This document shows, piece by piece, positions 27,797 through 28,582 of a DNA stretch of 64,000 bases. The DNA lies in contig NZ_RFLW01000003.1 in the NCBI RefSeq assembly GCF_003719295.1, positions 372,001-436,000 of the forward strand. The letters run 5' to 3'. The stretch is from Haliea alexandrii. Lineage in GTDB: Bacteria > Pseudomonadota > Gammaproteobacteria > Pseudomonadales > Halieaceae. The notes under the pieces are model-generated. The model made no database searches and was not told where the DNA came from. It saw nothing but the letters and a program-made list of their open reading frames with translations. The translations under genes and the position numbers were made by a program. Every line of letters begins with the position of its first letter. Within the stretch, counting starts at the first letter, position 1.

Positions 27797-28582
27797 TTGC
27801 ACAAAGCCAAGGCCGTAACCTCAGCGCATTTTTTACTGGCACTCCTGCTGGCGCTTGGCGCCGTCAACGCCAATGCGATGCAGATCTTCGTCAGAACACT
27901 CACCGGCAAGAACATCACTCTCGACGTCGAACCCAGCGATACGATCGAGAACGTCAAACAAAAGATTCAGGATAAAGAAGGCATCCCGCCGGACCAGCAA
28001 CGCCTGCTCTTCGCAGGCAAGCAACTCGAAGACGGTCGCACACTGTCTGACTACAACATTCAGAAGGAATCCACGCTGCATCTGCTGCTACCGCTGCGGC
28101 GCGAGTTCGTCGGCCAGCTGCCGGGCGGCGGCGCGGGCACGCTCCGCTTTACCACCACCGATGCGAACTGCACGTTCGCTACCGACCCCGTGTTCACCGC
28201 CGCTATCGATCCGCCCAAGGGGGTTGACTTTCCCTACGGCGTTGTCGCTTTCACCGTGAATGGATGCGACTCCGATGCCAAGATTGACGTCACGATAGAT
28301 TTCGGCGAGCCACTGCCGGCAGACGCCACCGCGTGGAAGACCGACCCCTGGACGCCGATCGCGGGCGCCACCGTCAGCGGGAGCGTATTGAGCTACTCCG
28401 TGACCGACGGTGGACCGAATGATGCCGACGGCAGCAGCAATGGCGTCATTGTCGATCCCGTGGGGGCTGGCATAGCCGGTGAAACATCAGCGACCGCCAT
28501 ACCGGCACTGCCGGTTGCGGGGCTGTCACTATTGACCGGCCTGTTGGCACTCTTCGGCATGCGCCGGATACGGAACCGATAA
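27797..28582 (+). CDS. Exported ubiquitin fused to a choice-of-anchor domain and C-terminal sorting tail
   Basis: 262 residues from TTG 27797 (GGAG seven bases upstream); an ATG at 27749 would add 16 residues. Residues 1-27 form a clean signal peptide (HKAK, hydrophobic core, cleavage after ANA). Residue 28 is Met1 of a ubiquitin domain (28-103) identical to animal ubiquitin at 67 of 76 positions. Changes are K6R, T12N, E16D, A28Q, I44L, V70L, R72P, G75R and G76E. Lys11, 27, 29, 33, 48 and 63 remain, but the conjugating GlyGly is gone. Residues ~104-225 resemble the choice-of-anchor U domain ([18 protein letters not shown]). The end IPALPVAG plus a hydrophobic helix and RRIRNR resembles an IPTL/PEP-CTERM signal. 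No E1, E2 or deubiquitinase is nearby. Confidence 0.9.

What the first reader, a model, noticed from the sequence alone, without database searches (positions are those of the whole stretch)
27797..28582. A bacterial gene encoding an exported, surface-anchor-fused ubiquitin
The mature protein starts exactly at ubiquitin Met1 after a bacterial signal peptide, with 67/76 positions identical to animal ubiquitin (P19, E24 and S57 are the animal-type residues). Lys48, Lys63 and the L8/I44L/H68/V70L patch are kept or conservatively changed, while R72P, G75R and G76E destroy conjugation and DUB-cleavage ability. The rest is a bacterial anchor domain and C-terminal sorting tail. A displayed non-conjugatable ubiquitin could bind host ubiquitin receptors or ligases, act as a decoy, or be a structural module. 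Bacteroides fragilis secretes a ubiquitin homologue (BfUbb), but the fusion to an anchor domain here seems undescribed. Very high identity suggests recent transfer from a eukaryote or strong selection.
Basis: partly seen in the sequence, partly recalled or inferred. Interest (0 to 1): 0.97.

Follow-up and report, generated by a model that had tools for sequence, protein, structure and literature searches.

The report
Bacterial exported, envelope-anchored ubiquitin
A bacterium related to Haliea carries a gene that exports a near-perfect copy of ubiquitin, a protein best known from animal and plant cells, fused to what looks like a cell-envelope anchor; similar exported ubiquitins turn up scattered across bacterial phyla on very different proteins, and their job is unknown.

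Summary
Window 27797-28582 (+) encodes a 261-aa precursor: leader, 76-residue ubiquitin starting at Met1 (67/76 identical to human), choice-of-anchor U domain (2.4e-25) and an IPTL-like tail just below curated cut-offs. The frame and TTG start are kept in three other Halieaceae; dN/dS of the ubiquitin part is 0.05-0.19. It ends Arg-Glu, so normal conjugation is not expected. The genome encodes exosortase XrtH; in 140 family genomes XrtH tracks the anchor domain (30/33 against 42/107), not ubiquitin (6/11 against 66/129). The gene sits behind tRNA-Asn; four congeners show the site without it. 'Recent transfer from a eukaryote' is not supported for this gene: P19, E24 and S57 are common in bacterial ubiquitins and the gene has diverged within Halieaceae; the tree itself decides nothing. 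The larger result: this is one case of a scattered class. Of 90 prokaryotic ubiquitin proteins, 62 have a leader-like stretch directly before Met1 (ten phyla by record label); autotransporter, fn3, Ig, S-layer or IPTL modules follow in many, and 3 of 83 keep Gly-Gly (7 of 102 before rows were dropped). Proposed mechanism: a non-covalent, envelope-displayed binding head, target unknown.

The parts
27644..27719 (+). tRNA-Asn (gtt); the ubiquitin gene lies directly behind it
   Evidence: ARAGORN, Rfam; the same in L001, L002, L003
27729..27766 (+). hairpin plus T-run, read as terminator of the tRNA; contains the unlikely ATG start at 27749
   Evidence: fold (z-score only -0.99); GGGTT.CAGC.ATGT..CCC and a T-run in 4 of 4 copies; not listed by the consensus terminator scan
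27786..27789 (+). GGAG, possible ribosome-binding site, 7 nt before TTG
   Evidence: sequence; GGAA in L001 and L002, no clear match in L003
27797..27877 (+). TTG start and signal peptide (27 aa, ends ANA)
   Evidence: own hydropathy rule; no dedicated signal-peptide program was available
27878..28105 (+). ubiquitin domain, 76 aa, begins at Met1, ends LRRE instead of LRGG
   Evidence: PF00240 5.9e-30; model superposes on solved single ubiquitins, in most listed rows at 0.4-1.4 Angstrom over 71-75 columns, a few worse
28100..28483 (+). choice-of-anchor U domain, predicted beta-sandwich; the NF041766 match spans 28214-28471; Cys codons 28169-28171 and 28265-28267
   Evidence: model pLDDT 96.0, pTM 0.88; both Cys invariant in 28 of 28 rows
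28499..28573 (+). IPTL-like sorting tail: IPALPVAGL, hydrophobic stretch, basic end
   Evidence: TIGR04174 18.8 bits, cut-off 20.5; V/I-P-A/T-L-P in window and three orthologues
28630..29184 (+). neighbour: protein that looks like a coiled coil (by eye); kept with or without the ubiquitin gene, marks the empty site
   Evidence: no Pfam hit
25453..27471 (-). neighbour: uvrB, divergent, other flank of the site
   Evidence: Pfam

Best explanation
The gene makes an exported, non-conjugating ubiquitin that is held in the cell envelope. Shown by sequence: leader, ubiquitin from Met1, anchor domain with two invariant cysteines, IPTL-like tail, Gly-Gly lost, purifying selection, XrtH in the genome. 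Inferred: Sec export and signal-peptidase cleavage leave Met1 free; XrtH recognises and cuts the tail and leaves the protein attached or delivered to the outer surface, with ubiquitin as its distal head. Inferred and uncertain: the head works without covalent chemistry, as a protein-binding ligand in contact between cells. A bacterial neighbour is the likelier target, by analogy with the secreted antibacterial ubiquitin of Bacteroides fragilis; a eukaryotic grazer or host is the second choice.
For: Domains. XrtH 218.7 bits, cut-off 86. XrtH in 30 of 33 family genomes with an anchor-U domain against 42 of 107 without, Fisher p 8e-8, not corrected for kinship. Two invariant cysteines in the anchor domain, 28 of 28 rows. 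dN/dS of the ubiquitin part 0.05-0.19 in six pairs. A second ubiquitin with leader and VPALPLW tail in the same genome. In 90 prokaryotic ubiquitin proteins, 62 have a leader-like stretch directly before Met1; the same rule fires at 189 of 4196 internal Met of control frames. What follows ubiquitin in the 90 includes autotransporter 8, fn3 8, IPTL 7, Ig_7 6, SLH 4. Gly-Gly in 3 of 83 (7 of 102 before rows were dropped). Presence or absence at one site within a genus. B. fragilis ubiquitin: leader cleaved at Met1, last residues changed, toxic to other strains (abstract and passages of PMC5705921).
Against: No experiment. XrtH does not track ubiquitin itself: 6 of 11 genomes with, 66 of 129 without. 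The tail is below the curated cut-offs. Outer-surface location is not shown; the protein could stay in the periplasm. Among eight neighbouring proteins scanned with Pfam none is a recognised toxin, immunity or secretion protein. The B. fragilis protein is free, not anchored. Nothing here identifies a binding partner.
Confidence: 0.5

Rival explanations
1. Structural cap: ubiquitin is kept only as a small, very stable, protease-resistant fold that shields or spaces the N-terminus of envelope proteins; it binds nothing specific.
For: The same head sits on many unrelated modules. Core positions are the most conserved (mean 0.94), the canonical binding patch less so (0.69). The stability of ubiquitin is recalled knowledge.
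Against: Residues recalled as exposed are also highly conserved: Gln2 87, Asp58 85, Thr66 84 of 89; Lys27 89 of 89, but that lies in the seed stretch that selected most loci. A mere cap would be easy to replace, yet dN/dS is low.
Confidence: 0.2
2. Eukaryote-facing mimic: the displayed ubiquitin binds receptors, ligases or hydrolases of a host or grazing protist as a decoy.
For: Very high identity to eukaryotic ubiquitin; Lys48 and Lys63 kept. Some relatives may come from animal guts (L007, L009, L064; inferred from isolate names, meaning of the names recalled).
Against: Ile44 and Val70 are changed here, and the patch is the less conserved side in prokaryotes. Ubiquitin receptors are mostly cytosolic (recalled), and none of eight neighbours scanned is an injection-system protein. 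Relatives include records labelled Methanothrix and Prochlorococcus.
Confidence: 0.2
3. Released toxin: the ubiquitin part is cut off and diffuses as an antibacterial protein like the one of B. fragilis; the anchor is only a delivery vehicle.
For: B. fragilis precedent; the abstract of PMC5705921 states that the 76-residue synthetic protein alone is active. A later paper ties sensitivity to residue 119 of a peptidyl-prolyl isomerase (seen only as cited in PMC12396204).
Against: The join RR[E/T]F.GQLPGG is conserved in window and three orthologues and has no cleavage signal known to me; no evidence of processing.
Confidence: 0.08
4. Assembly artefact, contamination or dead gene.
For: None found.
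Against: Syntenic orthologues in three named assemblies, low dN/dS, genome given as 100% complete and 0.49% contaminated.
Confidence: 0.01

Closest known systems
BfUbb (Ubb) of Bacteroides fragilis, secreted eukaryotic-like ubiquitin
   Same: Bacterial leader cleaved exactly before Met1, near-eukaryotic ubiquitin, last residues changed so that no isopeptide bond is expected, present in some strains only (passages of PMC5705921 and PMC3352274).
   Different: BfUbb is 76 residues with a C-terminal Cys and is found in the medium; here the ubiquitin is fused to an anchor domain and a sorting-type tail. Antagonism is shown for BfUbb, untested here. BfUbb is 63% identical to human ubiquitin, this one 88% (67/76).
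Choice-of-anchor U / IPTL-CTERM proteins, substrates of exosortase H (XrtH)
   Same: Anchor domain over cut-off, tail of the IPTL type, XrtH in the genome. The link between XrtH and IPTL tails is recalled.
   Different: The other anchor-U frames listed in the family are mostly much longer; their N-terminal parts were not examined. A ubiquitin head on this anchor was not found in print.
Secreted ubiquitin-extension proteins of plant-parasitic nematodes
   Same: Leader plus ubiquitin plus C-terminal extension (as described in the discussion of PMC5705921).
   Different: Eukaryotic gene; 12-residue extension cleaved off in the plant; no anchor.
Eukaryotic ubiquitin precursors (polyubiquitin, ubiquitin-ribosomal fusions; recalled)
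   Same: Ubiquitin first, other protein behind it.
   Different: No leader; Gly-Gly present and cleaved by hydrolases; here Arg-Glu.

Membership tests
Ubiquitin (PF00240) | profile match over cut-off and ubiquitin fold | tested here: met
   103.3 bits, cut-off 25.4; model against solved ubiquitins
Conjugatable ubiquitin | C-terminal Gly75-Gly76 | tested here: not met
   Arg-Glu in window; RE, RE, RT in the three orthologues
BfUbb-type secreted ubiquitin | leader directly before Met1 | tested here: met
   by my own rule; control
BfUbb-type secreted ubiquitin | ends at residue 76 with Cys, released | tested here: not met
   158 further residues follow; release itself untested
BfUbb-type secreted ubiquitin | inhibits growth of related strains | not testable with these tools
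   needs bench assay
Choice-of-anchor U domain protein (NF041766) | domain match over cut-off | tested here: met
   89.2 bits, cut-off 32
IPTL-CTERM / XrtH substrate | tail match over curated cut-off | tested here: not met
   18.2 of 20.8 bits (Pfam), 17.7 and 18.8 of 20.5 (NCBIfam); close, and the V/I-P-A/T-L-P motif is kept in the orthologues
IPTL-CTERM / XrtH substrate | XrtH encoded in the same genome | tested here: met
   218.7 bits, cut-off 86
IPTL-CTERM / XrtH substrate | cleavage or sorting depends on XrtH | not testable with these tools
   needs deletion and proteomics

The most novel reading that the evidence does not exclude
Exported ubiquitin is a general module of prokaryotic cell envelopes: bacteria and some archaea of about ten phyla use it as the free N-terminal head of otherwise unrelated surface proteins, having lost its conjugating end; the Halieaceae gene is the exosortase-sorted form. 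Ubiquitin would then have a second, extracellular, non-covalent life in prokaryotes, of which the B. fragilis toxin is the only case I found studied.
Probability: 0.55. Interest if true: 0.9.

Novelty: new variant of a known kind. Interest (0 to 1): 0.75.

Why it matters
Ubiquitin is taken as the hallmark of eukaryotic cells, and the 2017 paper calls B. [quoted passage not shown] Here a ubiquitin 88% identical to the human one is found with an export signal and an anchor domain, under purifying selection, in Halieaceae, and ubiquitins in other architectures in records labelled as ten phyla. That asks which surface of ubiquitin is being selected when the conjugating end is gone, and it offers testable pairs: close relatives with and without the gene at the same site.

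Tried and rejected
Recent transfer from an animal: rejected for this gene, see the residue counts and the divergence within Halieaceae. It is not excluded for others: in the tree L083 and L086, Halieaceae ubiquitins with short tails, sit with yeast and Arabidopsis ubiquitin (99/73), and L084 with human (83/82); L086 is 96% identical to human over 73 residues. The tree of 98 ubiquitin domains decides little: the bootstrap had not settled, 56 of 95 inner branches are open, Halieaceae and eukaryotes each need two changes, and the window row is unplaced. Q28 as a bacterial signature: dropped, because the collection scan was seeded with KQKIQDKE and unseeded hits carry A, S, T or Q at 28. The same seed inflates conservation of residues 26-34. 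XrtH as partner of ubiquitin as such: no association. Phage carriage: no match in 50,697 phage records; one divergent viral contig, L096. Plasmids: 3 of 72,556 records. An injection system beside leaderless actinobacterial copies: none among ten proteins scanned in L036 and L065, one of them the ubiquitin itself. Solved relatives of the anchor domain: no match at E 0.001, best 0.18. Rows dropped: of 102 reading frames (leader rule 64, Gly-Gly 7) I removed 12 rows (fragments, divergent or doubtful records, a duplicate) to reach 90 (leader 62). Four of the seven Gly-Gly rows (L014, L022, one of L028, L075) went with them, so 3 of 83 is the favourable count. One search used 89 rows (L073 also dropped); 83 have a complete C-terminal side. 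Members were cut at 560 residues before the domain scans. The leader rule is my own hydropathy and -1/-3 rule, not a published predictor. Surface patches are recalled groupings.

Full report
What is there. Window 27797-28582 (+) is an open frame of 261 codons plus stop. It holds, in order: a 27-residue leader ending AVNANA; ubiquitin, 76 residues from Met1 (PF00240, 103.3 bits); a choice-of-anchor U domain (NF041766, 89.2 bits, cut-off 32); and a tail [27 protein letters not shown] that scores just below the IPTL cut-offs. The last two residues are Arg-Glu, so activation at a terminal glycine is not expected.

Start and transcription. The gene lies behind tRNA-Asn (27644-27719). The upstream ATG at 27749 falls in a hairpin followed by a T-run that looks like the terminator of the tRNA (z only -0.99; not listed by the consensus scan). 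In L001 and L003 that ATG is followed directly by a stop, in L002 not; TTG at 27797 is invariant in the window and all three orthologues. I take TTG as the start. The scan of 27400-29200 lists one promoter-like site, ahead of the tRNA, about as many as in shuffles.

Neighbourhood and history. The order uvrB (divergent), tRNA-Asn, ubiquitin gene is found in the window, Haliea sp. E1-2-M8 (L001), Chromatocurvus halotolerans (L002) and Pseudohaliea rubra (L003); the next gene, which looks like a coiled-coil protein, follows in three of the four, not in the stretch held of L002. In the genus, eight genomes were searched for that gene; seven have it, G018 does not. Two of the seven, the own genome and G020, carry the ubiquitin gene there; four (L098, L100, L101, L103) have tRNA-Asn and the coiled-coil gene less than 200 nt apart with no ubiquitin gene between; one, L099, is cut by a contig end. 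L098 is very close to the window (uvrB 376 of 377 residues identical, dS 0.20) and yet lacks the gene. Between window and L001 the ubiquitin gene has less synonymous change (dS 0.55) than uvrB (1.22) or the coiled-coil gene (0.96); with L002 also less than uvrB (0.93 against 1.35); with L003 about the same (1.27 against 1.18). This fits a gene of some age in the family, with losses and perhaps exchange through the shared flanks; it does not fit a recent arrival from a eukaryote. The ubiquitin part is under constraint: dN/dS 0.05-0.19 in six pairs; anchor 0.09-0.28; tail 0.24-0.52 in five pairs, one saturated.

Sorting. The own genome encodes XrtH (218.7 bits, cut-off 86). That XrtH serves IPTL tails is recalled; NCBIfam's model midcut_by_XrtH matches 10 of 90 ubiquitin proteins at E 0.01. 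In 140 genomes of the family XrtH passes its cut-off in 72, the anchor domain in 33, ubiquitin in 11. XrtH is present in 30 of 33 genomes with the anchor domain and in 42 of 107 without (Fisher p 8e-8), not corrected for kinship or incomplete genomes. XrtH and ubiquitin are not associated: 6 of 11 against 66 of 129 (p 1). So the sorting link rests on anchor domain and tail, not on ubiquitin. The four genomes with the anchor-bearing ubiquitin (G000, G020, G011, G137) all have XrtH.

Structure. The full mature protein with four rows gave a mediocre model (mean pLDDT 68.6), whose ubiquitin part superposes on solved ubiquitins (target-normalised TM 0.87 or more in nearly all single-ubiquitin rows of the 50 shown, one at 0.30). 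The anchor domain alone, with 28 rows, gave a confident beta-sandwich (pLDDT 96.0, pTM 0.88) without a solved relative (best E 0.18). Two cysteines are invariant in 28 of 28 rows, which suits an oxidising compartment outside the cytoplasm.

The wider class. A scan of genome contigs (84,980 species) gave 78 loci with relatives; it was seeded partly with KQKIQDKE, so it is neither complete nor unbiased. Unseeded profile searches found ubiquitin over cut-off in 11 of 140 family genomes, in 1 of 368 other genomes drawn from the class (three more had sub-threshold matches), and in 9 of 288 genomes drawn from the phylum of Verrucomicrobia bacterium IMCC26134, that genome included; the ten new loci of that search (L141-L150) show a hydrophobic leader before ubiquitin by eye. 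The 14 control genomes had none. From the loci I took 102 ubiquitin frames and kept 90. By my own rule 62 of 90 have a leader-like stretch ending at Met1, residue -1 being Ala in 51, Gly in 8, Ser in 3; the same rule fires at 189 of 4196 internal Met in control frames. Leader-bearing rows carry labels of ten phyla, one archaeal (labels, rule). Many are metagenome bins whose names may be wrong, but leader-bearing rows also lie on a complete genome and long isolate contigs (L020 on CP011265, L012 on NZ_JAUTDO010000002, L013 on NZ_JAAATX020000004). In the 90, autotransporter barrels follow in 8, fn3 in 8, IPTL in 7 (9 in NCBIfam), Ig_7 in 6, SLH in 4; 17 show an IPTL-like motif with a hydrophobic, basic-ended tail. 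Gly-Gly is kept in 3 of 83 with a complete C-terminal side, or 7 of 102 before rows were dropped. The 28 rows without a leader by my rule include tandem actinobacterial genes that look cytoplasmic, so export is not universal.

Which face is kept. Over 89 sequences, identity to human ubiquitin averages 0.94 in the core, 0.90 on the Phe4 side, 0.84 round Asp58, 0.69 in the Ile44 patch and 0.28 in the last five residues. Patches are recalled groupings, rows are not weighted for kinship, and residues 26-34 are inflated by the seed. In the window Gln2, Phe4, Thr14, Glu64 and Thr66 are intact, while Ile44 and Val70 are Leu. This mildly favours a binding face other than the canonical one.

What it most likely does. 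Shown: a conserved, non-conjugating ubiquitin fused in frame to leader, anchor domain and sorting-type tail, in a genome with XrtH. Inferred: export, cleavage at Met1, attachment or delivery to the surface by XrtH. Proposed: a non-covalent binding head in contact between cells. The one studied relative I found, BfUbb, is secreted and inhibits other B. fragilis strains (abstracts and passages); a later paper, seen only as cited, ties sensitivity to one residue of a peptidyl-prolyl isomerase. That makes a bacterial target the first choice here, but the window protein is anchored and untested, so it is not filed as a BfUbb member.

Literature. No title or abstract start in the listings was about bacterial surface-anchored ubiquitin; one search showed 25 of 437 papers. 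Passages of two domain surveys (PMC3482391, PMC1949818) and of a 2024 review (PMC11354881) do not mention it in what I saw. Subscription papers are not held, so this is absence from what I saw of that library only.

Noticed in passing
L080 (own genome, C1:728502-728786, minus strand): A second exported-type ubiquitin in the same genome: leader, ubiquitin from Met1 (72% to human over 69 residues), then directly a VPALPLWTL tail without anchor domain.
   Followed up: partly
L081 (own genome, C1:1436340-1436666): The only other anchor-U protein found in the own genome (536 aa frame), without ubiquitin, ending in a VPLPLW tail.
   Followed up: partly
L023, L036, L040, L056, L065, L066: Two or three tandem ubiquitin genes without leader, several starting MSG-MQIF, each followed by a related domain (TG-V/I-VTY...) of unknown kind; five of the six records are labelled actinobacterial. 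Neighbours scanned in L036 and L065 are ordinary enzymes and a transporter, two of ten without a named function.
   Followed up: partly
L002:6770-6802: In Chromatocurvus a second copy of the tRNA-Asn terminator-like hairpin lies directly behind the ubiquitin gene, so the gene is flanked by a direct repeat; possible trace of how it was inserted (by eye).
   Followed up: no
L020, L039: Verrucomicrobial records with two exported-type ubiquitin genes close together, the second more divergent.
   Followed up: no
L083, L086: Short-tailed ubiquitins of other family members are 93-96% identical to human ubiquitin and group with yeast and Arabidopsis in the tree (99/73); a separate, younger origin is possible.
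   Followed up: no
L071: Uncultured Bacteroides record with a leader plus free ubiquitin ending in Cys, like the published description of BfUbb; not compared with BfUbb itself.
   Followed up: no
L011, L053: Archaeal bins labelled Methanothrix and Methanosarcinales carry leader plus ubiquitin on larger proteins.
   Followed up: no
window 28067-28105 (ubiquitin residues 64-76): A solved structure exists of a G75R ubiquitin variant bound to KLHDC3 (9d1y); the window protein has the same Arg at position 75, by coincidence as far as I can tell.
   Followed up: no
L001:8981-9817: Partial extra copies of the coiled-coil neighbour gene behind the ubiquitin locus in Haliea sp. E1-2-M8.
   Followed up: no
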